Both the position numbers and the translations under genes were made by a program. Of a stretch of DNA of 64,000 nucleotides, positions 6,780-35,202 are shown piece after piece. The DNA comes from an uncultured Caulobacteraceae bacterium (GTDB lineage Bacteria; Pseudomonadota; Alphaproteobacteria; Caulobacterales; Caulobacteraceae): positions 248,001 through 312,000 of the forward strand of contig CAKZPF010000006.1 in NCBI GenBank assembly GCA_937138625.1, in the 5' to 3' direction. The notes beneath the pieces are model-generated. The model saw only the letters and a program-made list of their open reading frames with translations, was not told the origin of the DNA and made no database searches. Numbering within the stretch: the first letter of the stretch is position 1; each line of letters starts with the position of its first letter.

Positions 6780-7202
6780 TTATTGCCGATACAAATCCAA
6801 TTCGTGGATAAACTCTTTGGGATCCGGGGTTGTTTTCGGTCCCATTTTGGGTTCAGCCTTCTGCCGCTCTGGACGCACGGGATCGGGCCGGACCTGATCT
6901 AGATCTGGTGTTTTGCGCTGGCGGTCAGGTGTGGCGGGTTCGGGTTTAGGGTTGGTATTGGGCTCGGGTTCGACGGGTTTGTTTTCAAAAAACTCACGAT
7001 CCAAAAACCGCGTCAGCAGTGCGCATTCTTTCTCGTATTTGCGCAGCAGGCTGTCTTGATTGGGGGTGCGGTTGTTCTTGGCGCGCAAATCGGCGGCTTT
7101 TTGGCAGGGGTCATCGGTCAGGGGCATGGCTTGCCAATCGGCAAGGGCCGTATCCTCGACCCAGCCGGCGCGGCCGATGTGGGTGGGTTGGGTGATCTGC
7201 AT
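6780..7202 (-). CDS. Small two-cysteine hairpin protein, paralogue of 11802-12173
   Basis: A 140-residue protein that I cannot assign to a named family. It has no signal peptide. Its first 40 residues align with the product at 11802-12173: M-x-IT...M-x(2-3)-DPC-x2-A-x2-LR. Cys33 and Cys60 bracket a predicted helical hairpin, then comes a Pro/Glu/Lys-rich disordered stretch (about residues 70-120) and a C-terminal ELDLYRQ that resembles MDLYEYR of the paralogue. Good ribosome binding site (GGGAGG) before the ATG. A promoter candidate (TTGTAA, 16 bases, TAATAG on the minus strand) lies about 80 bases upstream. Function unknown. Confidence 0.75.
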   Translation of the reverse strand: MQITQPTHIGRAGWVEDTALADWQAMPLTDDPCQKAADLRAKNNRTPNQDSLLRKYEKECALLTRFLDREFFENKPVEPEPNTNPKPEPATPDRQRKTPDLDQVRPDPVRPERQKAEPKMGPKTTPDPKEFIHELDLYRQ

Positions 7203-7280
7203 CTGTGTCCTCCCTTCAGAGGGTTGTTTCTTGTGAACAGCCTCCCCAAGGCGATGCTGTCATACCATAGGATCAATGCG

Positions 7281-7308
7281 CTATTATGACGGTGATGCGA
7301 TTTTACAA
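7281..7308 (-). promoter_or_regulatory. Putative sigma-70-type promoter for the 6780-7202 gene
   Basis: On the minus strand TTGTAA (7303-7308), a 16-base spacer and TAATAG (7281-7286). It reads toward the small two-cysteine protein gene. Confidence 0.4.
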
Positions 7309-7344
7309 AGACTCGGTCGGTGGCGTGGTACCCCTCCGTACAAA

Positions 7345-7370
7345 GAAAAACCCCCACCGCAGCGGGGGTT
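7345..7370 (-). terminator. Intrinsic terminator of the BAX-inhibitor-like gene
   Basis: On the minus strand AACCCCC / GGGGGTT pair around an eight-base loop, followed by a T run (7345-7350 read as A on the plus strand). It lies 27 bases beyond the stop of the 7397-8113 gene. Confidence 0.85.
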
Positions 7371-7396
7371 CTGTCAGTTTGGTGCTGATGTTCGGG

Positions 7397-8113
7397 CTAT
7401 TCGCGCGCTGTGCCCAAAAACTGCAGCAAGAACATAAACAGGTTCAAGAAGTTGATATAGAGGCTGAGCGCCCCCAAAATCGAGGTCCGCGCCGCCATGG
7501 TCGCATCCCCGGCCACTTGGTAATAGGTGTGCTTGATGCGCTGGGTGTCAAAGGCGGTCAGGCCGGCAAAGATCAGCACGCCAATAACGTTAACGGCAAA
7601 CGCCAGTGCCGAGGACTGAAAGAACAGATTGGCCAAGCTGGCGATAATCAGCCCAATCACACCCATAATCAGGAAGGTGCCCATGGGGCTAAGGTCGCGT
7701 TTGGTGGTGTAGCCATACAAGCTGAGGCCGCCAAAGGCCGCCGCTGTGATGAAAAACACCTTCAGGACCGAAACGGCGGTAAAGGCCAAGAAAATCCAAC
7801 TGATGGACAGCCCCATCACCGCCGAGAAGGCATAAAAGGTCCAGCGGGCGGCGCTGGGCGACATGCTCATGATTTTCATGCTGAAGGCGAAAACGAACAC
7901 CAGCGGGGCAAACATCACCACCCATTTCAGGGGTGTGGTGAAAATGGCCTGCATCAAGGCCGGTGAGCTGGCGGCAAACAGCGCCACCAGGCCAGAAATC
8001 AGCATGGCGATGGCCATGTGATTGTAAACGCCCAGCATATAGCTGCGCAGACCTTGGTCTATGCTCATGTCCGTGGTGCCAACCCGGGCCTGAGCGCGAT
8101 GGAACTCTTGCAT
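7397..8113 (-). CDS. BAX inhibitor-1 (YbhL/YccA) family membrane protein
   Basis: A 238-residue protein with about seven hydrophobic helices after a polar N-terminus (MQEFHRAQARVGTTDMSIDQ). The region FDTQRIKHTYYQVAGD near the C-terminus is the family's conserved Asp-Thr-Gln segment, associated in bacterial homologues with pH-dependent calcium leak. It acts in the inner membrane. The start at 8113 is set by GGAGGAA just upstream. A promoter fits at 8147-8176 (TTGCAA, 18 bases, TATAGT). A terminator follows. Its possible calcium link is notable given the many calcium-loop proteins around it, but that connection is only inference. Confidence 0.93.
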   Translation of the reverse strand: MQEFHRAQARVGTTDMSIDQGLRSYMLGVYNHMAIAMLISGLVALFAASSPALMQAIFTTPLKWVVMFAPLVFVFAFSMKIMSMSPSAARWTFYAFSAVMGLSISWIFLAFTAVSVLKVFFITAAAFGGLSLYGYTTKRDLSPMGTFLIMGVIGLIIASLANLFFQSSALAFAVNVIGVLIFAGLTAFDTQRIKHTYYQVAGDATMAARTSILGALSLYINFLNLFMFLLQFLGTARE

Positions 8114-8146
8114 TCGTTTCCTCCGATGATGTGCGAGATTTCTCCC

Positions 8147-8176
8147 ACTATATGGGTGGGATATTGGCCTTTGCAA
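8147..8176 (-). promoter_or_regulatory. Promoter of the BAX-inhibitor-like gene
   Basis: Minus strand: TTGCAA at 8171-8176, 18-base spacer, TATAGT at 8147-8152. The predicted start lies about 30 bases before the ATG and leaves room for the GGAGGAA ribosome binding site. Confidence 0.55.
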
Positions 8177-8286
8177 GGGGGAACGGCGTGGAATCCGATG
8201 ATCCCGGCCCCGGTTCCGTCCTCAGTGCAGCCCAAAAGCGCAAATACGATCGCCAATGGCCTTCATATCAAATAAGGAAAAAGATC

Positions 8287-8315
8287 TTAACAAAGGATTG
8301 ATCCCATGCTATAGG
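8287..8315 (+). promoter_or_regulatory. Promoter of the 8392-9198 gene
   Basis: TTAACA (8287-8292), exactly 17 bases, TATAGG (8310-8315). A similar pair (TTAAGT, 17 bases, TATAGG) precedes the gene at 9802. Confidence 0.6.
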
Positions 8316-8323
8316 GTCACAAG

Positions 8324-8339
8324 ATGACAAACTTGTCAT
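8324..8339 (+). promoter_or_regulatory. Operator-like palindrome ATGACAA-AC-TTGTCAT
   Basis: A perfect 7-bp inverted repeat with a two-base centre lies just after the predicted transcription start of the 8392 gene. That is a classic place for a repressor site. The cognate regulator is not apparent in the window. Confidence 0.5.
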
Positions 8340-8391
8340 GTGTTCTGCGTGTATCTGTGGTTTGAAATCTATTGGTTCCCAGGAGGTCAAA

Positions 8392-9198
8392 ATGCCCATT
8401 CCCCCCGTCACCCCCGCGCCGCAAAAGGTGCCCGACATCACCCAACAGGACTTTGCCAACCGATTGCTGAAACCCACGGGTGATGGCAACCGAAAACTTG
8501 GCCTGGGCAATTTGGTCAGCAACCGGCCCGAGCAACGCGACCTGACCAATGATGGCGTGGCGGAATGGATATACAGCTTTTCTTCCGGGCAAAAGCTGAT
8601 CGTCGTCAGCAATATGAACGCATGGGGCGTCACGGGCACCCGGCAAGAGCCGATCACCAAGAAGGAGATCGTGGACTATAAGCCCACACGAGAGTGGATC
8701 TCGACGGGCACCGAGCCGGTTTACGAGACCCACACGCCTGACACCTGCCCCGAGAAGGAGCGGTTGCTGGAGGCTTATAATAGGGCTAGAGACCGGGCGA
8801 AGATTTATGTTGATGACAATGGAAATTTACAAGGTAGTATATTTGAAGTGAATCAAGCCCAAAAGGCCTACGAAAATTACACCTGCCCAACGACCAGAAC
8901 CAAGGTGGACGAAAAAGAAACCGGATATTGGGATGAGGGCGAAGAGCCCATTTACAAAGAGGTCCCCACCGGCCGCACCCGCACGGTGGATGTCTATGGC
9001 TATATGGCCGATTTCGGCAATCTGGATGGCGACCCCAAAACGCCCGAGACCTGGATCGCCAATATCGTCTGGGGCGATGATCCGGCCACCCGTAACATTG
9101 AAAACGAAGTTCGCCGGGCCGTGGTGGTCGTGGGCAATCCGCCGCCAAAACGCGTCGATCAAGACCCCGCCCCCATCATCCTGGACGACAAAAACTAG
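8392..9198 (+). CDS. Hypothetical protein with calcium-loop and two-cysteine hairpin modules, paralogue of 12189-13025
   Basis: A 268-residue protein without signal peptide or membrane segment. It aligns along its whole length with the product at 12189-13025: both start M-x-IPPVT, share DGxAxxIYSFSSG (residues about 54-66 here), a Cys-helix-NG-helix-Cys hairpin (Cys119 to Cys165 here), repeated Thr-Gly-Thr-Arg/Glu strands, a Asp-Gly-Asp loop (FGNLDGDPKTPET) and a Pro-rich tail. LTNDGVAEW resembles FG-GAP or dockerin-type calcium loops. Ribosome binding site AGGAGGT. Own promoter and an operator-like palindrome upstream. No known family recognised. It may be structural or secreted by a leaderless route; neither is shown. 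Confidence 0.8.
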   Translation: MPIPPVTPAPQKVPDITQQDFANRLLKPTGDGNRKLGLGNLVSNRPEQRDLTNDGVAEWIYSFSSGQKLIVVSNMNAWGVTGTRQEPITKKEIVDYKPTREWISTGTEPVYETHTPDTCPEKERLLEAYNRARDRAKIYVDDNGNLQGSIFEVNQAQKAYENYTCPTTRTKVDEKETGYWDEGEEPIYKEVPTGRTRTVDVYGYMADFGNLDGDPKTPETWIANIVWGDDPATRNIENEVRRAVVVVGNPPPKRVDQDPAPIILDDKN

Positions 9199-9229
9199 AC
9201 AGCAAAGCCTGCGAGCCACCCCATAAAGC

Positions 9230-9264
9230 CCTCTCCCATAGGGAGAGGGTTGGGTGAGGGGGGG
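9230..9264. repeat. Half copy of the two-hairpin repeat
   Basis: Contains CCCTCTCCC-ATA-GGGAGAGGG followed by TTGGGTGAGGGG, the right half of the longer repeat found at 9293-9400, 11054-11146 and 11509-11633. Confidence 0.85.
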
Positions 9265-9292
9265 CGCTTAGGCTGGAACGCCAAGGGTGTTG

Positions 9293-9400
9293 CCCCTCAT
9301 CCGGCTCGTGCCTCGCCACCTTCTCCCTATGGGAGAAGGAAAAATCTGAGGGCCCACTGCATAATAGCCCTCTCCCGTGGGGAGAGGGTTGGGTGAGGGG
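9293..9400. repeat. Two-hairpin dispersed repeat, copy 2
   Basis: Begins CCCCTCATCC, holds hairpin CCTTCTCCC-TAT-GGGAGAAGG, a spacer with CCCACTGCATAATAG, hairpin CCCTCTCCC-GTG-GGGAGAGGG and ends TTGGGTGAGGGG. The outer ends are inverted relative to each other. A 14-base segment rich in CTCG is inserted in the left end compared with copies 3 and 4. Confidence 0.9.
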
Positions 9401-9496
9401 TTTTGATGTTCCCGTCTGTATGGCAACGGGGCCCAAACCACCCCCGTTCATCCCGGGCGTGACCCGGGATCCATAGGGCGGCGCGGCTGGGTATGG
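9367..9496. repeat. About 130-bp duplicated segment, copy A
   Basis: Nearly identical to 11600-11732. It joins the right half of the two-hairpin repeat to a second module containing GTATGGCAACGGGG and the palindrome TCCCGGG-CGTGA-CCCGGGA, ending in GGCGGCGCGGCTGGG. Confidence 0.9.
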
Positions 9497-9669
9497 CTTG
9501 GGGCCAAGTTTGCTCATGGGTTACCCTTGGATCCTCTCCCCTTGGATCCCCTCACCTTGATCCTCTCCCCAAGGGAGAGGAAAGAGGGAGAGGAAAGACG
9601 ACTCCCTTCCGGTCGCGTGATCGGGTGGGGCGCACCCAGGGGGCGAAATGTGACGCCAGTGTCTTGGGC

Positions 9670-9720
9670 TTGACATATAGGTAAAAATGTCTTAAGTTCA
9701 GCCCAAATTTGTGCTATAGG
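9670..9720 (+). promoter_or_regulatory. Promoter region of the 9802 gene
   Basis: Two overlapping candidates: TTGACA at 9670-9675 with a TAAGTT 17 bases on, and TTAAGT at 9692-9697 with TATAGG at 9715-9720 (17 bases). The second matches the promoter of the 8392 gene. Downstream, GGCCTGC...GCAGGCC (9722-9749 region) and GGCC-AAAA-GGCC can fold in the leader just before the GGAGG site. Confidence 0.45.
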
Positions 9721-9801
9721 GCCTGCAGACTGCATTTCACGCAGGCCGAACATAACGGTTGAAACGACAACATTCAGGCCAAAAGGCCGGAGGTAGACAT
9801 T

Positions 9802-10941
9802 ATGGGATTTTTTGGTTTCGTAAATAATCTATTTGGCTTTCGCGATGGGTTTAATAATATTCGCCTTGGAGATATTGCCAATGTGCCGCAGAATTTCCGA
9901 AATAATGTCAATACAATTGTTCAAAGCAATGCGGCTAATATTCGCGGGGACGTATACCCAATTAGCCAAGAGCAACTCACGGCTGCGGGTATCACCACGC
10001 CTGTGAATCAGGTGTTTACTCGTGTAGGCTTGAACTCAACAAGTTTTATAGTGAACCAAGATATCACAATCAATGACACGAGTTCTAATCCGCCCAGAAC
10101 CACACAATTGAGTGCTGGTGAGGTCATTAGCATGTATCAGGGAGATTTTGGGCCTGATACAACACATCCTCAGTGGACGGGGGGGATATTCGGCCAATAT
10201 AACCCGAGTCAAGCATGGCGATTTTACGGGTTTGATCTAAATGGGGACATTGATTTTAATAGTTTTGCTGGCCTCGATCCCTCTTTCAGTGACGAATACG
10301 GACGCGTTTGGGTAAGGTATGATCGCACCCACAATACGCTTTCCCAAATCAGTAACACTTCACAATTTGACCAAGCCAATGCTCATAGATTGCCAATTGG
10401 TTTAAATCGCGCGGCTGGCGATTATGTATATGCGACCGGTGATGGGCAATGGACTTTGATCAGAAAAACCTATATGGGTTTAGACAATATTAATTCTGCA
10501 GGTCGTCACCCGGTGACGGGTCAGCAGCTCAATAACCCCTATTTCAACCAACAGTTTGGCTATAATCAGTATAACCAATCCTGGCCTGGTGCATTTAACC
10601 AATTCACACCCGGCGGCTTTGATCCCCGTTTATACTATGATCCCATAAATAACCCCTTTGAGTGGCAACACAGCATTGGCAATATGGCTAATGCTTATAA
10701 TACGACGCCAGAAACGAGTTTTTTACGTGTGGTGCCCCAGAATGATGTCACCGGCGATTTGGCGCTGCTGCGGGATTATCTGCGCCAGGGGTATACGTAT
10801 CGCGACGGTTTCCTGAATGGCTATGGCGCTTGGAGCGTGGACTATACGTTCCAAGAGGGCACCCCGCCCCAGCCGGTGACCAAGACCATCACCGATGCTT
10901 ATCTGAACCAACAGGGCGAACTGATCGTCGAGTATGCCTAA
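9802..10941 (+). CDS. Asn/Gln/Phe-rich hypothetical protein of unusual composition
   Basis: A 379-residue protein with a good ribosome binding site (GGAGG) and no signal peptide. I recognise no family. The first 310 or so residues are rich in Asn, Gln, Phe and Tyr and written in AT-rich codons quite unlike the neighbours; from about base 10740 the remaining 65 codons switch to the GC-rich usage of the host. One loop, FDLNGDIDFNSF (around residues 144-155), resembles a calcium-binding EF-hand-like loop. The C-terminal part contains short repeats of aromatic and polar residues that suggest beta structure. It could be a recently acquired surface or matrix protein, but this is inference. Confidence 0.75.
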   Translation: MGFFGFVNNLFGFRDGFNNIRLGDIANVPQNFRNNVNTIVQSNAANIRGDVYPISQEQLTAAGITTPVNQVFTRVGLNSTSFIVNQDITINDTSSNPPRTTQLSAGEVISMYQGDFGPDTTHPQWTGGIFGQYNPSQAWRFYGFDLNGDIDFNSFAGLDPSFSDEYGRVWVRYDRTHNTLSQISNTSQFDQANAHRLPIGLNRAAGDYVYATGDGQWTLIRKTYMGLDNINSAGRHPVTGQQLNNPYFNQQFGYNQYNQSWPGAFNQFTPGGFDPRLYYDPINNPFEWQHSIGNMANAYNTTPETSFLRVVPQNDVTGDLALLRDYLRQGYTYRDGFLNGYGAWSVDYTFQEGTPPQPVTKTITDAYLNQQGELIVEYA

Positions 10942-11053
10942 GGCTTGAGGGGCTGCGGCCCCTTGGCCCTGTGCCTAGGATCGATCAAAAGGTTCGGGAG
11001 AAGGGCTTGAGGCCTTTTGTCCGCCTTGTCATTTTATTCTGCGACCTGTGTCT

Positions 11054-11146
11054 CCCCTCATCCTAACCTTCTCCCTGTGGGAGAAGGAATATCTGTGGCC
11101 CACTGCATAATAGCCCTCTCCCCCTGGGAGAGGGTTGGGTGAGGGG
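11054..11146. repeat. Two-hairpin dispersed repeat, copy 3 (left of DUF559 gene)
   Basis: CCCCTCATCCTAACC, then hairpin CTTCTCCC-TGT-GGGAGAAG, spacer GAATATCTGTGGCCCACTGC, then hairpin CCCTCTCCC-CCT-GGGAGAGGG and GTTGGGTGAGGGG. The two outer ends are near-complementary, so the whole 93-base unit can also form one long hairpin. It ends 16 bases before the DUF559 start codon. Confidence 0.92.
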
Positions 11147-11162
11147 GTATAACGAGACGAGT

Positions 11163-11507
11163 ATGCCCATGAAAACAAAAACGCAGCTGGCCCGCAAACT
11201 TCGTCGTCACCAAACGGATTGCGAACAGGTATTGTGGCGCGCCATCAGAAATCGCCAACTCTGTGGCCACAAATTTCGCCGTCAAGTTCCCATTGATCGC
11301 TTTATCGTTGATTTTGTGTGTCAGGAAAAAAGGCTGATCATTGAACTGGATGGCGGCCAACACACAACAACGCCCGAAGCCGATGCGGACCGCACACGTG
11401 TGCTGGAGGGGTGTGGGTATATCGTGCTACGGTTCTGGAATGCGGATATTCTGGGGAACTTACAGGGTGTGCTGGAAACCATAGCGGAGCAATTGCAACG
11501 GGTTTGA
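11163..11507 (+). CDS. DUF559 (Vsr-like PD-(D/E)xK) endonuclease-domain protein
   Basis: A 114-residue protein made almost entirely of the DUF559 domain, a relative of very-short-patch-repair endonucleases. The expected active-site pattern is present: Asp50 in RFIVDFVC and ExD at Glu61/Asp63 in IELDGGQH. The basic N-terminus (ARKLRRHQTDCEQVLWRAIR) is typical. ATG 11163 or 11169 could start translation; the ribosome binding site (GAGACGAG) is weak. Copies of the two-hairpin repeat lie 16 bases before the gene and one base after its stop, so gene and repeats look like one unit. Substrate is unknown; mobility of the repeat is a hypothesis. Confidence 0.88.
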   Translation: MPMKTKTQLARKLRRHQTDCEQVLWRAIRNRQLCGHKFRRQVPIDRFIVDFVCQEKRLIIELDGGQHTTTPEADADRTRVLEGCGYIVLRFWNADILGNLQGVLETIAEQLQRV

Positions 11508-11508
11508 T

Positions 11509-11633
11509 CCCCTCATCCTAACCTTCTCCCCATGGGAGAAGGAATATCTGTGATCCACCCTATATAGCCCTCTCCCGTTGGGGTGAGATATGTAAACTAG
11601 CCCTCTCCCCCTGGGAGAGGGTTGGGTGAGGGG
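11509..11633. repeat. Two-hairpin dispersed repeat, copy 4 (right of DUF559 gene)
   Basis: Starts one base after the DUF559 stop codon with CCCCTCATCCTAACC and hairpin CTTCTCCC-CAT-GGGAGAAG. The right half is duplicated: a degenerate CCCTCTCCCGTTGGGGTGAG (about 11568-11587) precedes a full CCCTCTCCC-CCT-GGGAGAGGG and TTGGGTGAGGGG. Confidence 0.92.
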
Positions 11634-11732
11634 TTTTGATGTTCCCGCCTGTATGGCAACGGGGGCCAAACCATTCCCGTTCATCCCGGGCGTGACCCGG
11701 GATCTATGGGGCGGCGCGGCTGGGCAATATGG
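11600..11732. repeat. About 130-bp duplicated segment, copy B
   Basis: Matches 9367-9496 with about a dozen differences. It includes the TCCCGGG-CGTGA-CCCGGGA palindrome. A separate hairpin, ACCCCAGC-TTGC-GCTGGGGT (about 11770-11789), follows before the next gene. Confidence 0.88.
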
Positions 11733-11801
11733 CCTGATGCCACAAAGCCTGAACCCAACGGCTGCATGGACCCCAGCTTGCGCTGGGGTGAGCGGAGGGG
11801 G

Positions 11802-12173
11802 CTATAGACCGTTCTCGAGGCGGTACTCATACAGATCCATGCGCATTTGCTTTTTTTCTTCTTCCTCTTTCTTTTTGGCGGCGGCCTTTTCTGCTGGGGT
11901 CAGTTCGCGGGGCGCTGGCGCCGCTGCCCGTTGCCGATCACAGTCATCTTCCTTGGCCTCGATTTGCTTGGTCAGCCGATCATAGGCCTGTTGATCAAGA
12001 ATAATTGGGCGTACGAAACGACCATTAGGGCCGATGTCAGGCTCTGAAACATACTTCTCCCGTTCTTTACGCAGTTTTTTGGCCTCGTCGCAGGGGTCGG
12101 CCGTCATCAGATGACCGCCAAAGGCCTCGTGGTCTGTGATCGCCGTCTCGTTGGGTGTGGTGGTGATTTTCAT
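11802..12173 (-). CDS. Small two-cysteine hairpin protein
   Basis: A 123-residue protein of no family known to me, without signal peptide. Cys28 (in ADPCDEAKKLR) and Cys78 bracket a helix, a loop with IGPNGRF, and a second helix DQQAYDRLTKQIE. That second helix aligns with DQDEYDTLTDEI of the 13232-13570 product, and the N-terminus aligns with the 6780-7202 product. A charged Ala/Lys/Glu coiled stretch (about residues 85-110) and a MDLYEYR tail follow. The ATG has GGAG upstream and lies 15 bases after the stop of 12189-13025, so the two genes form an operon. The neighbour carries a diverged version of the same hairpin. Confidence 0.78.
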   Translation of the reverse strand: MKITTTPNETAITDHEAFGGHLMTADPCDEAKKLRKEREKYVSEPDIGPNGRFVRPIILDQQAYDRLTKQIEAKEDDCDRQRAAAPAPRELTPAEKAAAKKKEEEEKKQMRMDLYEYRLENGL

Positions 12174-12188
12174 GACATTTGCTCCGGG

Positions 12189-13025
12189 TTAGTTCTGTTT
12201 GAACAGATCCAAATAATCTTTTTCTTGCTCTTTGGGTTTTGGTGGCGGCGGCGGTGGTGGAGGGGGCGGTGCATCCTCGAGCACCACCGTCATTCTGCTG
12301 ACGGCATAGGTTTCAATATCAAAGGTGTCCGGGTTGTCGCGCAGCGGGATGTGGCCAATGACCTGTTCACGGGTGTTGCCATCCCCATCAATATCGTTCC
12401 AATTGGCGACAGGTTTCATAATGGGTACGGTTTTTGTGCCGATGTATTCCCGTTTGTAATCAATGATATTGTCATAGTCTAAGACCTGTTTGCAGTCACT
12501 GTAATCCGTGACGGTGCGGGTGCCGGTTTTGCTGACGGTTTTGCAGCCCGCGGCAACAATGGCCTCTAGTTCATTCTTTCGATTCATATCGGGTCCAGGT
12601 GCCTCTACACCATTAATGATGACCGGTTTGCCACTAAACTGCCAATTGCCGTTTTTTAACTCGTCTTTCGCGGCATCCCTCTCGGTGCAGTCCTGTTCTG
12701 TATAGCTGTAGCTTTCTTGTTTCGTGCCATACTCGATTTTGGTGCCATAGACCGGGGTTTCTTTGTATTGTTCCTCATCGCGTGTGCCGGTCTGGACTTC
12801 CTCGCCATAATTGGTGATCAGAAACACCGTTTTGCCACTGCTGAAGCTATAGATCAGGTCCGCCTGGCCATCGTTGCTGATGTCTTGCTGACGCGGCGCG
12901 CTGGCATAACCAAGGCCATATTGTTTGTTGATTTTCCCGCGGGGGTTCAGGACTTGGTCTTGAAATTCCTTTGGGGTCAGACTGGGATTACCAGCTGCGG
13001 TGACGGTAACGGGTGGTATGCTCAT
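12189..13025 (-). CDS. Hypothetical protein with calcium-loop and two-cysteine hairpin modules, paralogue of 8392-9198
   Basis: A 278-residue protein. It shares with the 8392-9198 product the MxIPPVT start, the DISNDGQADLIYSFSSG segment (residues about 48-64), a Cys113-to-Cys161 hairpin with a NG-containing loop, Thr-Gly-Thr-Arg/Lys repeats, and a second calcium-loop candidate WNDIDGDGNTRE (about residues 207-218). It ends in a run of ten or so prolines and a charged DYLDLFKQN tail. No signal peptide. Ribosome binding site AAGGGGG before ATG 13025. First gene of a two-gene operon with 11802-12173. The poly-proline stretch could act as a rigid linker. Function unknown. Confidence 0.8.
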   Translation of the reverse strand: MSIPPVTVTAAGNPSLTPKEFQDQVLNPRGKINKQYGLGYASAPRQQDISNDGQADLIYSFSSGKTVFLITNYGEEVQTGTRDEEQYKETPVYGTKIEYGTKQESYSYTEQDCTERDAAKDELKNGNWQFSGKPVIINGVEAPGPDMNRKNELEAIVAAGCKTVSKTGTRTVTDYSDCKQVLDYDNIIDYKREYIGTKTVPIMKPVANWNDIDGDGNTREQVIGHIPLRDNPDTFDIETYAVSRMTVVLEDAPPPPPPPPPPKPKEQEKDYLDLFKQN

Positions 13026-13231
13026 GATGGCCCCCTTTCAGATATCATTTGCCAATCTGAGAAATAGGATTAATTCCCGCTAACCAAGATGGCAAGTCAC
13101 AGTTTTTTGACGCACTAAGGGGGCTTAACGCCCATATGGAAAAATAATTTCTGTTTTTTGACGTTTTTTCTTGATTTTTCGGTCAGGGTTTTCTTAGATG
13201 CAGGGGTCATCCAAAAACCGGGAGGAAAAAC

Positions 13232-13570
13232 ATGATTGGAAATATGACCACGGCCCCTATGGCCCCGCTGCCGTTTGACAAAACTTTCGAGGTCAATGGC
13301 GATGCATGTGAGGAAATGTTTGATAAAATTGACGAGCGGGACGCCCTGGTGGAAACTCGTACCCTCGAGCCCGGTGACCCATGTGACAGCTGCGAAGGGG
13401 GCTATGTCCCCGCGGGGCAATATCTGAAGGTTGAGGTCATCACCGACCAGGATGAGTATGACACCCTGACCGACGAAATCGCCGACCTGCGTAAAGCGTG
13501 CGAAAGCACACAAGAAGGCGAGTCCGATGGTCCCTTAGATGACCAAAGCTGGGATGGCCAGGACTGGTAA
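13232..13570 (+). CDS. Small acidic cysteine protein related to the two-cysteine hairpin family
   Basis: A 112-residue acidic protein starting with a strong ribosome binding site (GGGAGGAAAAAC). Cys26 and Cys90 frame two helices, and the second (VITDQDEYDTLTDEI) clearly resembles ILDQQAYDRLTKQI of 11802-12173. It differs by an extra CxxC (Cys51, Cys54, in DPCDSCEGGY) in the loop, which could bind a metal. The C-terminal 20 residues are nearly all acidic or polar. It is divergent from the 12189-13025 / 11802-12173 operon with 206 bases between, and followed by a terminator. Role unknown. Confidence 0.75.
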   Translation: MIGNMTTAPMAPLPFDKTFEVNGDACEEMFDKIDERDALVETRTLEPGDPCDSCEGGYVPAGQYLKVEVITDQDEYDTLTDEIADLRKACESTQEGESDGPLDDQSWDGQDW

Positions 13571-13607
13571 ATCCTAAGAGGTCCGAAGGCCCTCATCACA
13601 GATCAAG

Positions 13608-13645
13608 CGGCAGAGATGTGACCCCGTGTCAGCTCTGCCGTTTTT
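13608..13645 (+). terminator. Intrinsic terminator after the 13232-13570 gene
   Basis: CGGCAGAG / CTCTGCCG stem (13608-13615 and 13633-13640) with TTTTT after it. Confidence 0.85.
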
Positions 13646-13665
13646 ATATGATGTGATTTCAGAGG

Positions 13666-14169
13666 TTAAACCCCTGTCGAGCCAAAACCACCTGAGCCGC
13701 GGGCGGTTTCTGGCAGTTCGGCCACCGTTTGCAGGCGGGCCTGGACGACGGGCGCGATCACCATCTGCGCGATGCGGTCACCGCGCTTGATGACCACCGG
13801 ATCCTTGCCGGTGTTGACCAAAATCACCTTCACCTCGCCGCGATAATCGGCATCCACTGTGCCCGGCGCGTTCAGCACCGTCAGGCCTTGTTTCCAGGCC
13901 AAACCGGAACGGGGACGCACCTGGGCCTCGAAGCCATCAGGCAGGGCAATGGCCAGGCCTGTGGGCACCAGGGCCCGCTCGCGCGGTTTGATGGCGATGG
14001 GCAATTCATCTTCGCAGGCGGCGCGCAGATCCATACCCGCCGAGCCCGCGGTTTCATAAGACGGCAGCGGCAAATCTTGGTGGTGGGGCAGAAGTTTGAT
14101 TTGCACCGTGGGGCGCACTGTGGCCTTGGGCGTATCCAGGGGGTGGTCCAGGGTCAGGGTGTCGCTCAT
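13666..14169 (-). CDS. dut: Deoxyuridine 5'-triphosphate nucleotidohydrolase
   Basis: A 167-residue trimeric dUTPase that hydrolyses dUTP to dUMP and pyrophosphate, keeping uracil out of DNA and feeding dTMP synthesis. All five family motifs are present: [24 protein letters not shown] (catalytic Asp), RGDRIAQM and the C-terminal GSGGFGSTG. Start ATG 14169 has AGGAGG upstream; a TTG one codon earlier is in frame. It lies nine bases downstream of coaBC, a pairing common in proteobacteria, so the two are probably co-transcribed. Confidence 0.97.
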
Positions 14170-14178
14170 CAAATCCTC

Positions 14179-15372
14179 CTACAGCCAATCTGGGATGTGG
14201 GTCACCAGGCGGGACGCCGCGTCTGATTTGTCCATGGCCCCCCAGTCCTGTGTGCCAGCCTTCGTCACCAGCGTCCAGTCCGTTGTGGCTTGGCCAAAAA
14301 CCGCGCCATCGGCCACGGAATTGGCCACAATCACATCACAGCCCTTGCGGTTCAGTTTCTGCTGGGCGTTGGCCACCAGGTCTTGGGTTTCGGCGGCAAA
14401 GCCGATCACCAGCTTGGGCCGTTTTGTGTGCGTCGACAGTGTACGCAAAATGTCAGGCGTCTCGGTGAAGGTCAGCTGGGGCGGGCCGTCAGGGCCTTTC
14501 TTGATCTTATGGGCACGGGGTGTGGCCAGCTTCCAATCGGACACGGCGGCGGTGCAAATGGCAATCTCGGCGGGCAGGGCGCGTTCGCACGCCGCCAGCA
14601 TTTCGTCCGCCGTTTCCACATCCACACGATCAACGCCCACGGGCGTTGGCAAGTGGACGGGCCCGGCCACCAAGGTCACACGCGCGCCGGCGCGGGCCAG
14701 AGCCCCGGCGATAGCAAAGCCTTGTTGGCCACTGGATCGGTTGGTCAGCACCCGCACGGGATCCAGGGCCTCGGCGGTGGGGCCGGCGGTGACCAGGGCG
14801 TGATGGCCGACCAGGGTCTGGCCGTGGGTCAGCTGGTTTTCAATCGCGGCCAAGATTTCGGTGGGTTCTGCCATGCGGCCGGGGCCATGTTCGCCACAGG
14901 CCATATCGCCCGTGTTGGGGCCGACAAACGCAATGCCAAACTCACGCAAGGTTTTCGTATTGGCCATGACGGCGGGATGCTGCCACATGCGCACATTCAT
15001 GGCCGGCGCCATCAACACGGGCGTGTCGGTGGCCAACAGGGTGGTCGAGGCCAGATCATTGGCCAGGCCATTGGCCACCTTGCCCATCAGATCGGCGGTG
15101 GCGGGCGCGACCACAATCAAATCGGCGCTGCGGCTGAGCTCGATGTGGCCCATTTTGTTCTCGGCCGTCAGGTCAAACAGATCACTGCGCACCTCGTGCC
15201 CGGTCAGGGCTTGCAGCGACAGGGGGGTGACAAACTCGGCGCCCGCACGGGTCAGGATGGCCTGGGTTTGGTGACCGGCTTTGCTGATCAGGCGCACAAG
15301 CTCGAGACTTTTATAGGCGGCAATCCCACCGCCGACGATCAACAGAATGCGTTTTGTCTCCACCATGGTCAC
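14179..15372 (-). CDS. coaBC: Bifunctional phosphopantothenoylcysteine decarboxylase / phosphopantothenate-cysteine ligase
   Basis: A 397-residue fusion making 4'-phosphopantetheine from phosphopantothenate in coenzyme A synthesis. The N-terminal flavoprotein CoaC half has GHIELSR (catalytic His), PAMNVRMW and [11 protein letters not shown]. The C-terminal CoaB half starts near [14 protein letters not shown] and includes TNRSSG and the lysine-rich KIKKGPDGP. The GTG at 15372 is taken as start because GAGGT sits at proper distance; the ATG two codons later is the alternative. Upstream of dut and just downstream of ubiB (eight-base gap). Confidence 0.97.
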
Positions 15373-19449: not shown

Positions 19450-19478
19450 TTGTAATTGTGCCCAGCCTTCGCTATGTT
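19450..19478 (+). promoter_or_regulatory. Promoter of the 19527 gene
   Basis: TTGTAA (19450-19455), 17 bases, TATGTT (19473-19478). Confidence 0.5.
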
Positions 19479-19526
19479 GCCCCGGAAAACCACAGGTTTA
19501 CGGGGAAATGGCGAAGGGTAGGCGTG

Positions 19527-20162
19527 ATGATCCTCACAGATATTGGTATGGGTGATAGAGGAAGTATGGCTTCCGATAATGGTGTTGCGCCAGAGCTTGG
19601 ACCCGCCATCAGCTCTATGGATCGTCAAGAGGGTGATACCTTTATCAAAACCATCATGACGGCGGATGTGACAGGCGATGGGGTGGCTGACCCGGTTTTC
19701 TTGAAATATCAAAAGCAAGATGGCGATTATGTCTTTGTGGGCGCTGTCTATACCTCCGGCGAGCACGGTGGCGGAGATGGTGAGCAGCACTTGTCTATTC
19801 TTTATGATGATGTGCACGGCAATTATTTTTACGGTGATTATACGGGGCTTGGTCACAAAGGCGATGGTTTTGAGGATACCTTTTGGTTTGCGGGTCGCTG
19901 GGAAGGTGATAACGAGATTTTTGGCCTGGTTGAGCAGCGATATCGCGCCAATGTGCGCTATATGGTCGAGGCTCATCCGCAGTCGGATCTGCATGGTTTG
20001 GTGCAAGGTCACGAGATCAAAGGTGCCGACCTGGTGCAAGAGCGCGGCAGCTTTGCGCGGCCCTTACGCATCGAAATCCAAGATGAACATGGTCAGGTCG
20101 AGGTCGAGCGCAGTTTCATCTATTATGGCTATTACGATAATGTGTTGCCTGAGGGGCACTAA
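19527..20162 (+). CDS. Hypothetical protein with a DVTGDGVAD calcium loop
   Basis: A 211-residue protein of no known family, without signal peptide or membrane segments. Residues 47-55 (DVTGDGVAD) form a calcium-loop motif like those of FG-GAP repeats, followed by beta-like strands (VFLKYQKQDGDYVFVG). This parallels the DGQADLIYSF segment of the 12189 protein and the NNGDGLFDVIEV segment of 29575. The rest is rich in Tyr, Gly and Asp. Start ATG 19527 has GAAGGG upstream; an ATG at 19569 after GAGG is possible. It has its own promoter and interrupts an otherwise conserved echA-rpsT neighbourhood. Function unknown. Confidence 0.7.
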   Translation: MILTDIGMGDRGSMASDNGVAPELGPAISSMDRQEGDTFIKTIMTADVTGDGVADPVFLKYQKQDGDYVFVGAVYTSGEHGGGDGEQHLSILYDDVHGNYFYGDYTGLGHKGDGFEDTFWFAGRWEGDNEIFGLVEQRYRANVRYMVEAHPQSDLHGLVQGHEIKGADLVQERGSFARPLRIEIQDEHGQVEVERSFIYYGYYDNVLPEGH

Positions 20163-29574: not shown

Positions 29575-29991
29575 ATGTCTATTCACCAAGTCCGTGACAC
29601 CACACGGCAAAGCCCGTTGTCAGATGCCCAAAATCCGGCAGATTTTACAGAAAGCTTGGCTGCCCATCAGGTCACGGACCCCGAACCGAGCAAGTGGATT
29701 GAAGTCAGTCGTACACCCAAAGACAATAACGGGGACGGTTTGTTTGATGTCATTGAAGTTGAGTACAAATCCACCGATCCGGACAGCGAATTAAAAAAAG
29801 TGGCCTGGTACGTGGATAAAAACTCTAATGGTATAATTGACCCGGAGGATGCCCAGGTGACGCACCGGGTTTTCATCCCCAGTACCTATAGTCCTCAAGA
29901 GTTTCCCCAGCCCCCACAACGGGACAGTGTGCCCGCCACAAGGCCCCCGCGCCAAAAAGACGATCGCCCAGTTTATATGACCTCGATGTAA
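29575..29991 (+). CDS. Hypothetical protein with two calcium loops
   Basis: A 138-residue protein with no recognised family and no signal peptide. Two loops match calcium-binding patterns: DNNGDGLFD (residues 50-58, followed by a beta-like VIEVEYKS) and DKNSNGIIDPED (81-92), an EF-hand or dockerin-like dodecamer. Between them, KKVAWYVD may form a strand. The Pro/Arg-rich C-terminus is probably disordered. ATG 29575 has GGAG six to seven bases upstream; a GTG at 29563 is also in frame. Monocistronic and flanked by its own promoter. Belongs with the other scattered calcium-loop proteins of this window. Function unknown. Confidence 0.72.
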   Translation: MSIHQVRDTTRQSPLSDAQNPADFTESLAAHQVTDPEPSKWIEVSRTPKDNNGDGLFDVIEVEYKSTDPDSELKKVAWYVDKNSNGIIDPEDAQVTHRVFIPSTYSPQEFPQPPQRDSVPATRPPRQKDDRPVYMTSM

Positions 29992-34887: not shown

Positions 34888-35202
34888 ATGGGACAGTCAT
34901 TTTTAAGCAACGGCAATGTGTCGGCTGTGGGCATGCTGCAAACCCCAGACGGGCAGTTGGCCATCCGCACTGCAGAGCAAAGTTTTGAATTGACTTTGGA
35001 TACCGGGGAAACGGTCAGCATTATGCCCGGGCAAAAATTTGTGGTCACCGGCGAGCAAGCCAGTGGCTATGAGGTTGCGGCCAGCAAAGGGCGGGCGCAG
35101 TACGCCGATGCCGATCATGACGGCCGGGCAGACGATCGTCGCCTGTTGGTCAATGGCGAAGTGATTTACCAACTGGATCGCACGGATAATCTGGGCTGGT
35201 AA
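34888..35202 (+). CDS. Small hypothetical protein with a DADHDGRAD calcium loop
   Basis: A 104-residue protein with strong translation signals (GGAAAGGA before ATG 34888), a consensus-like promoter and a terminator. No signal peptide. The N-terminal part looks like a small beta barrel (MLQTPDGQLAIRTAE, then FELTLDTGETVSI). Residues 74-82 (DADHDGRAD) form a calcium-loop motif like those in the 19527 and 29575 products, followed by a strand (LLVNGEVIYQL). No known family recognised. It stands as an independent transcription unit between regA and dapB. Confidence 0.75.
   Translation: MGQSFLSNGNVSAVGMLQTPDGQLAIRTAEQSFELTLDTGETVSIMPGQKFVVTGEQASGYEVAASKGRAQYADADHDGRADDRRLLVNGEVIYQLDRTDNLGW

What the first reader, a model, noticed from the sequence alone, without database searches (positions are those of the whole stretch)
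6780..13570. Clustered family built on a two-cysteine helical-hairpin module
Three small proteins (6780-7202, 11802-12173, 13232-13570) and two larger ones (8392-9198, 12189-13025) all contain Cys, a helix, a polar loop (often with Asn-Gly) and a second helix ending in Cys. The small pair 11802/13232 share DQxxYDxLTxxI before the second Cys; 6780/11802 share M-x-IT...DPCxxAxxLR. The large proteins carry the same Cys-to-Cys hairpin at residues 119-165 and 113-161. All lack signal peptides. Small and large members occur together, once as an operon, suggesting they pair or assemble. I know no described family like it.
Basis: partly seen in the sequence, partly recalled or inferred. Interest (0 to 1): 0.78.

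Follow-up and report, generated by a model that had tools for sequence, protein, structure and literature searches.

The report
Cysteine-bracketed orphan proteins near injectisome
A small-genomed relative of Caulobacter carries two tiny families of proteins found in no other genome searched, built on a helical hairpin bracketed by two cysteines, and because the same genome also holds a needle-like protein-injection machine, they are plausible but unproven exported proteins.

Summary
The observation largely holds. All five genes exist with the stated cysteines and motifs. The two large proteins are homologous (shuffle z 34). Of the small ones, 11802/13232 look related (z about 6); 6780 is only a weak match (z 3.9; 1.8 with Cys masked). 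No sequence signal links small to large. AlphaFold2 models of one large and one small protein give a similar order: Cys, helix, loop, helix, Cys; in the large one it tips a two-stranded ribbon. Homology of the module across sizes is unproven.

No convincing relative outside this genome: large-family profile A3 in 299 family, 398 phylum and 11 class genomes (own included in each), small-family profile in 60. A third large paralogue lies elsewhere in the genome.

Best explanation: export through that injectisome, the hairpin an exposed, disulfide-locked tip. Export, disulfide and target are inferred; N-terminal tests are weak and no promoter box was found.

The parts
6780..7202 (-). small protein, 140 aa, Cys33/Cys60; weakest member; Pro-rich tail ending HELDLYRQ
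7023..7106 (-). Cys-to-Cys segment (residues 33-60) of the 6780 protein
   Evidence: not modelled
8392..9198 (+). large protein, 268 aa: N-domain with DLTNDGVAE, beta ribbon, Cys hairpin, C-domain with NLDGDP
8626..8733 (+). outgoing ribbon strand, residues 79-114 (pLDDT under 50 before about residue 88)
   Evidence: AlphaFold2 model
8746..8886 (+). Cys119-helix-loop-helix-Cys165 module at the ribbon tip
   Evidence: helices 120-136 and 150-162
8893..9003 (+). returning ribbon strand, residues 168-204 (pLDDT under 50 from residue 196)
   Evidence: AlphaFold2 model
11802..12173 (-). small protein, 123 aa, Cys28/Cys78, 15 bp behind 12189-13025
11940..12092 (-). Cys28-helix-loop-helix-Cys78 module
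   Evidence: H27-39, H61-84, pLDDT about 90
12189..13025 (-). large protein, 278 aa, homologue of the 8392 protein; DISNDGQAD and DIDGDGNTRE
12543..12689 (-). Cys113 to Cys161 segment of the 12189 protein
   Evidence: not modelled
13232..13570 (+). small protein, 112 aa, Cys26/Cys51/Cys54/Cys90, probable homologue of the 11802 protein
13307..13501 (+). Cys26 to Cys90 segment of the 13232 protein, holding an inner CDSC
   Evidence: not modelled

Best explanation
The five genes are a lineage-restricted set of exported proteins from two orphan families. In the large family, N- and C-terminal segments carrying calcium-loop-like motifs flank a long two-stranded beta ribbon whose tip is a helix-loop-helix bracketed by two cysteines; the small proteins are little more than such a hairpin with disordered ends. 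They lack Sec signals and most likely leave the cell through the genome's Rhc-like type III injectisome, fold outside, bind calcium, close a disulfide between the two cysteines, and present the hairpin as an exposed binding tip to a host-cell or partner surface. Shown: genes, family relations, absence from the genomes searched, the injectisome genes. Predicted: the topology of two proteins. Inferred: export route, calcium binding, disulfide, binding role.
For: Injectisome: SctV 849 bits against a cut-off of 692; over cut-off in 1 of 100 genomes searched, this one (the other 99 are relatives); a second homologue here is under cut-off and presumably flagellar FlhA. SctJ, SctL, SctN, SctQ, SctR and SctT over NCBIfam cut-offs; SctS, SctU, SctD and a short SctC below cut-off but best-matched by those models, SctD and SctC with Pfam domains over gathering score, SctD's being the rhizobial Y4YQ C-terminal domain. 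Signal-less proteins with D-x-[DN]-x-[DN]-G-x-x-[DE]: 30 of 548 signal-less genes in 770 kb of this genome, 2 of 245 in relative G011 (Fisher 0.0013). One such protein (L103:5185-6729, DVNSDGVSD) starts 242 bp from sctD, divergently; in 100 genomes, own included, its only other match is E 2e-4 across three stop codons. N-termini of those 30 are richer in S/T/P/N/Q and poorer in D/E than their own bodies (p about 2e-4). Models. The T6SS marker PF05936 is absent; of two VirB4-type genes one is TrbE of a conjugative cluster and the other lies in a similar-looking cluster (by eye).
Against: The five are not near the injectisome genes (different contigs). The N-terminal excess is also seen, weaker, in ordinary genes (difference of the excess p 0.04 and 0.02), and the recalled P. 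syringae N-terminal rule is not enriched (5 of 30 against 70 of 466; 3 of the five). No convincing promoter box. None of the five matches the strict DxDxDG pattern (none is in the list). At least two of the 30 motif genes look like ordinary enzymes (L130:2095, which hits the gene at window 45085 that I read as ribosomal S1; L113:7655, alike to its neighbour L113:10233). Three other alphaproteobacteria with an SctV-like gene show 0 of 220 such proteins, so the set does not go with injectisomes in general; their other injectisome genes were not checked. Models rest on two or three sequences. A type I route is not excluded: the PrtD search found nothing over cut-off, but the Caulobacter vibrioides control did not pass it either.
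Confidence: 0.35

Rival explanations
1. The proteins are exported to the cell surface or matrix by another signal-less route, for instance type I secretion as for Caulobacter S-layer proteins, and are structural or adhesive rather than injected.
For: Calcium-loop-like motifs and paired cysteines suit an extracellular place (inference); two long ABC exporter-like genes exist (256 and 226 bits to TIGR01842).
Against: Neither reaches the PrtD cut-off of 510, though that control is uninformative; no RTX-type repeats seen by eye in the five; their C-termini share at most a DL[YF] tail in three of five (by eye).
Confidence: 0.25
2. They are cytosolic lineage-specific proteins of no export relevance; the cysteines are reduced or bind a metal, and the motif excess reflects an unrelated expansion.
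For: No signal peptide; the genes sit among housekeeping genes; no promoter box; N-terminal tests weak.
Against: Calcium-loop-like motifs and Cys-bracketed hairpins would be unusual for the cytosol (general knowledge, not tested); the motif excess over a relative.
Confidence: 0.3
3. They are remnants or cargo of a mobile element or phage.
For: Two of the five (12189, 11802) and the neighbour 9802 have lower GC (0.51, 0.54, 0.47) than the window (0.58); short palindromic repeats and a DUF559-like gene lie between (by eye); conjugative clusters occur elsewhere in the genome.
Against: The other three have the GC (0.55-0.57) of the flanking housekeeping genes 6386 and 7397 (0.56). PHROGs: no hit for the five at E 0.1. 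The 12189 protein finds no match in phage or plasmid records, the large alignment none in viral contigs. No integrase or phage structural gene seen by eye in the list between 6386 and 14169.
Confidence: 0.1

Closest known systems
Type III secreted effectors (as a functional kind)
   Same: no Sec signal, S/T/P/N/Q-rich N-termini, orphan and lineage-restricted, genome with an injectisome
   Different: secretion not shown, no effector domain found, no shared promoter box, not clustered with the injectisome
FG-GAP / calcium-loop repeat proteins (Pfam PF13517)
   Same: residues 48-71 of the 12189 protein (QDISNDGQADLIYSFSSGKTVFLI) resemble one FG-GAP unit (13.8 bits, E 0.093)
   Different: far under the gathering score of 26.9; one or two units at most, no signal peptide
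Tir intimin-binding domain (PDB 1f02, 2zqk)
   Same: helix, beta-hairpin, helix exposed on a type III delivered protein (recalled); Foldseek ranks 4 and 6 for the 11802 model, prob 0.47 and 0.35
   Different: E 0.97 and 1.3; VIA Z 3.7 at ranks 42-43, rmsd 5.4-6.0, no better than unrelated rows, and Z 2.6 for the large model; an analogy of shape only
Membrane-fusion-protein alpha-hairpin (MexA type)
   Same: best VIA rows for the large module, Z 5.3-5.4, rmsd 2.6-2.9, 46-48 residues
   Different: Z under 8 may be only a common arrangement (note); MexA has no Cys bracket of this kind (recalled)

Membership tests
Type III secreted effector | secreted in an injectisome-dependent way | not testable with these tools
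   needs an experiment
Type III secreted effector | genome encodes a non-flagellar injectisome | tested here: met
Type III secreted effector | no Sec signal, N-terminal secretion-signal composition | tested here: inconclusive
   no signal peptide (for four, 6780 by eye); composition excess modest; P. syringae-type rule 3 of 5 for the finding, not enriched in the motif set
Type III secreted effector | co-regulation with the injectisome by a promoter box | tested here: inconclusive
   no convincing box among 33 upstream regions by k-mer and dyad counts against 392 others; a weak search
FG-GAP repeat (PF13517) | score over Pfam gathering cut-off | tested here: not met
   13.8 bits against 26.9, one protein only
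Tir intimin-binding domain fold | significant structural match | tested here: inconclusive
   E about 1, Z 3.7
Twin-CX9C (CHCH) hairpin proteins | two CX9C pairs (definition recalled) | tested here: not met
   bracketing pairs 27, 46, 48, 50 and 64 residues apart
One common hairpin family of small and large proteins | sequence cross-hits between small and large members | tested here: not met
   z at most 1.3 in six pairings; no cross-hit
One common hairpin family of small and large proteins | same predicted topology of the Cys-to-Cys segment | tested here: inconclusive
   same order of elements in one large and one small model; three of five not modelled

The most novel reading that the evidence does not exclude
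A Caulobacteraceae bacterium with a reduced genome has built its own injectisome-exported orphan repertoire of dozens of calcium-motif proteins, in which disulfide-locked helical hairpins, alone (small) or on beta-ribbon stalks (large), act as host- or prey-surface binders.
Probability: 0.15. Interest if true: 0.75.

Novelty: new member of a known kind. Interest (0 to 1): 0.42.

Why it matters
If exported through the injectisome, these proteins would extend candidate type III substrates to a little-known Caulobacteraceae lineage and point to a host-directed life style; the ribbon-plus-locked-hairpin layout would be a new effector architecture. If cytosolic, they are a reminder that orphan clusters in small genomes need not form systems.

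Tried and rejected
Families: Pfam, PHROGs, NCBIfam, PADLOC gave only chance-level hits for the five; PDB sequences: none with the large alignment, one chance hit (E 0.52) with the small. Fold searches gave no match at E 0.001 or better; VIA rows were middling; absence of a match is not proof of a new fold. Weak genome hits: with A3, G015 and G230 (E 0.017, 0.049); with A2, G055, G029, G018 and a fourth place in the own genome on C3 (E 0.003-0.07). Four of these six were opened and look unrelated (L016, L005, L006, L012); L011 (G055, two stops inside) and L013 (G018, one stop) were not opened. The 12189 protein was searched in 60 genomes and A3 in the nearest named relative's genome: no match outside the own genome. 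The genome-contig scan with A1 confirmed nothing; the second scan went to GyrB to name the group. Viral contigs, phages, plasmids: none, searched for the large family only. Promoter motif: none convincing. P. syringae N-terminal rule: not enriched. T6SS: marker PF05936 absent. T4SS: two VirB4-type genes, conjugative. T1SS: inconclusive. Papers: searches, of which I saw the listings, and passages of PMC12700997, which say that terrestrial Caulobacter genomes carry type III systems, so an injectisome in this family is not new in itself. I make no wider claim about what is in print.
Full report
What is there. The five ORFs are real by codon score. The two large proteins align over most of their length (BLASTP 85 of 268 identical, E 4e-23 for the single comparison; z 33.8). 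By eye, conservation is concentrated in the first 75 residues (F....L.P.G..N...GLG, then NDG.A..IYSFSSG) and in the C-terminal DGD region, not in the Cys-to-Cys part (z 1.4). A profile of the N-domain (A3) finds four places in this genome: the two window genes and two in one gene elsewhere (G000:C4, L003:1099-2376, 425 aa). Between the second N-domain and the C-terminal ANWEDIN motif of that paralogue is a stretch that by eye could be helix, YGNG turn, helix, but it holds no cysteine (not modelled). So the bracket of cysteines is not a constant feature of the large family.

Small proteins. 11802 and 13232 look related (z 5.6-6.1; 5.2 with cysteines masked; BLASTP 9e-5), although phmmer at E 0.01 did not link them. 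6780 to 11802 is marginal. 13232 has four cysteines. A profile of the three (A2) finds its own three sources in 60 genomes, own included, plus four hits at E 0.003-0.07: one more in the own genome (C3, opened) and three in other genomes, two of which run over stop codons and one of which was opened (L012). I take these four for chance.

Shared module. By sequence the small and large segments cannot be joined. By prediction they look alike. The 8392 model (two-sequence alignment) is poor overall (mean pLDDT 53.3) but ten-residue means are 60-89 from 91 to 190: strand, helix 120-136, helix 150-162, strand. Cys119 and Cys165 stand just outside the two helices. The 11802 model (three sequences) has helix 27-39, a few isolated strand residues, helix 61-84, with Cys28 at the start of the first helix and Cys78 within the second. 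I did not see coordinates, so no Cys-Cys distance was measured. Convergence is as possible as common descent: helical hairpins are common, and the notes warn of that.

Orphan status. No family-library hit over a cut-off, no PDB sequence, phage, plasmid or viral contig match (searches covered the large family only). A3 at E 0.001 or better: own genome only, of 299 genomes in its family (two others, at 0.017 and 0.049, were opened and look like a TonB receptor and a short lipoprotein-like protein), of 398 in the phylum and of 11 with an SctV-like gene; the own genome is counted in each, and the groups overlap, so the numbers must not be added. The small profile was tried on 60 genomes only.

Whose genome. 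The window is G000:C6:248001-312000; the genome has 2,023,278 bases in 10 contigs, 98.8 % complete. The best GyrB match among the 80 named loci kept is 74 % to a MAG titled SZAS AMP-5, then Caulobacter sp. Root655 at 71 % (very near records may be left out there). PMC12700997 (passages) places SZAS_AMP-5 as a deep branch of Acaudatibacter, Caulobacteraceae.

Injectisome. Reading stretches of the genome for context turned up injectisome genes on contigs C1 and C2: SctJ, SctL, SctN, SctQ, SctR, SctT and SctV over NCBIfam cut-offs; SctS, SctU and SctD (60.6 bits against 86) below them, and a 204 aa SctC with N-terminal secretin domains only (93.7 bits against 238; Pfam N0 and Secretin_N over gathering), as in the split rhizobial secretin (recalled). 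TIGR01399 exceeded its cut-off in 1 of 100 genomes, the own, and in 0 of 14 control genomes. In the class sample 11 of 337 genomes, own included, had an SctV relative at E 1e-150, the best other 48 % identical; I did not check the other genes of those genomes.

Signal-less motif proteins. With one gene caller and one crude signal test, 31 of 728 genes in 769,966 bases here carry D-x-[DN]-x-[DN]-G-x-x-[DE], 30 of them among 548 signal-less genes; in 360 kb of relative G011 it is 2 of 335, both among 245 signal-less; in 400 kb of three other alphaproteobacteria with an SctV-like gene 0 of 301 genes, 220 of them signal-less. Fisher 0.0013 against G011. A first sample with a looser pattern gave 24 of 369. 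Stretches were partly chosen around hits, and at least two of the 30 look like ordinary enzymes, so the excess is indicative. The five themselves carry related but non-matching loops (DISNDGQAD, DIDGDGNTRE, DLTNDGVAE).

N-termini and promoters. The 30 motif proteins have more S/T/P/N/Q and fewer acidic residues at positions 2-26 than in their bodies (p 1.5e-4 and 1.9e-4); ordinary genes show the same trend less strongly (difference of the excess p 0.04 and 0.02). Against other signal-less genes, S/T/P/N/Q is higher (0.37 against 0.28, p 5e-5), but the aliphatic-at-3/4-plus-no-acid rule is not enriched. Many tests were made without correction. No convincing promoter box.

How it may work. An exported protein that needs calcium and an oxidising environment to fold, with a locked hairpin at the end of a ribbon, fits a binding or anchoring role at a target surface. 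Export by the injectisome is the best-supported specific route because it is the only dedicated host-directed machine found in the searches made: the type IV genes seen belong to conjugative clusters, the T6SS marker is absent and type I is undecided. This remains inference. The verdict: a genuine orphan cluster, two families rather than one proven, with a plausible but unproven link to a type III system.

Noticed in passing
L102:11724-19768, L115:769-2649, L103:1372-4942 (G000 contigs C1, C2): Rhc-like injectisome genes (short SctC, SctD, J, L, N, Q, R, S, T, U, V) in a 2.0 Mb Caulobacteraceae genome; SctV over cut-off in it alone of 100 genomes.
   Followed up: partly
L103:5185-6729: 514 aa signal-less Gly/Pro/Asn-rich protein with DVNSDGVSD, divergent from sctD; no Pfam hit at E 0.01, no convincing relative in 100 genomes.
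   Followed up: partly
window 19458-20162, 29575-29991, 34888-35202: Further signal-less proteins with calcium-loop-like motifs among housekeeping genes.
   Followed up: partly
L097:4564-5019, L097:11915-12400, L098:12154-15147, L104:4437 and 5948, L115 end: Signal-less LysM-like proteins by eye, two with several cysteines. Pfam LysM over cut-off for L098:12154; L104:4437 under cut-off; the others untested.
   Followed up: partly
L098:11230-19361: Run of signal-less proteins with similar-looking FNxxTG and DxNGDG motifs by eye, some Asn/Gln/Pro rich; among them the LysM gene at 12154-15147.
   Followed up: no
L107:14661-16895: Three tandem paralogues with EF-hand-like DPNRDGVIE loops, no signal peptide.
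   Followed up: no
window 9200-9600, 11050-11160, 11510-11760: Palindromic-looking intergenic repeats (CCCTCTCCC...GGGAGAGGG, by eye) around a gene at 11163-11507 that I recall as DUF559-like.
   Followed up: no
window 9802-10941: 379 aa low-GC (0.47) protein between the two large genes; no Pfam or NCBIfam hit, PHROGs only at E 0.041.
   Followed up: partly
C-termini of 6780, 11802, 12189 proteins: Shared tail-like DL[YF] motif (HELDLYRQ, RMDLYEYRLENGL, DYLDLFKQN).
   Followed up: no
L122:11322-19337, L191:6743-17988: Two similar-looking Trb conjugative clusters on separate contigs; TrbE of the first confirmed.
   Followed up: partly
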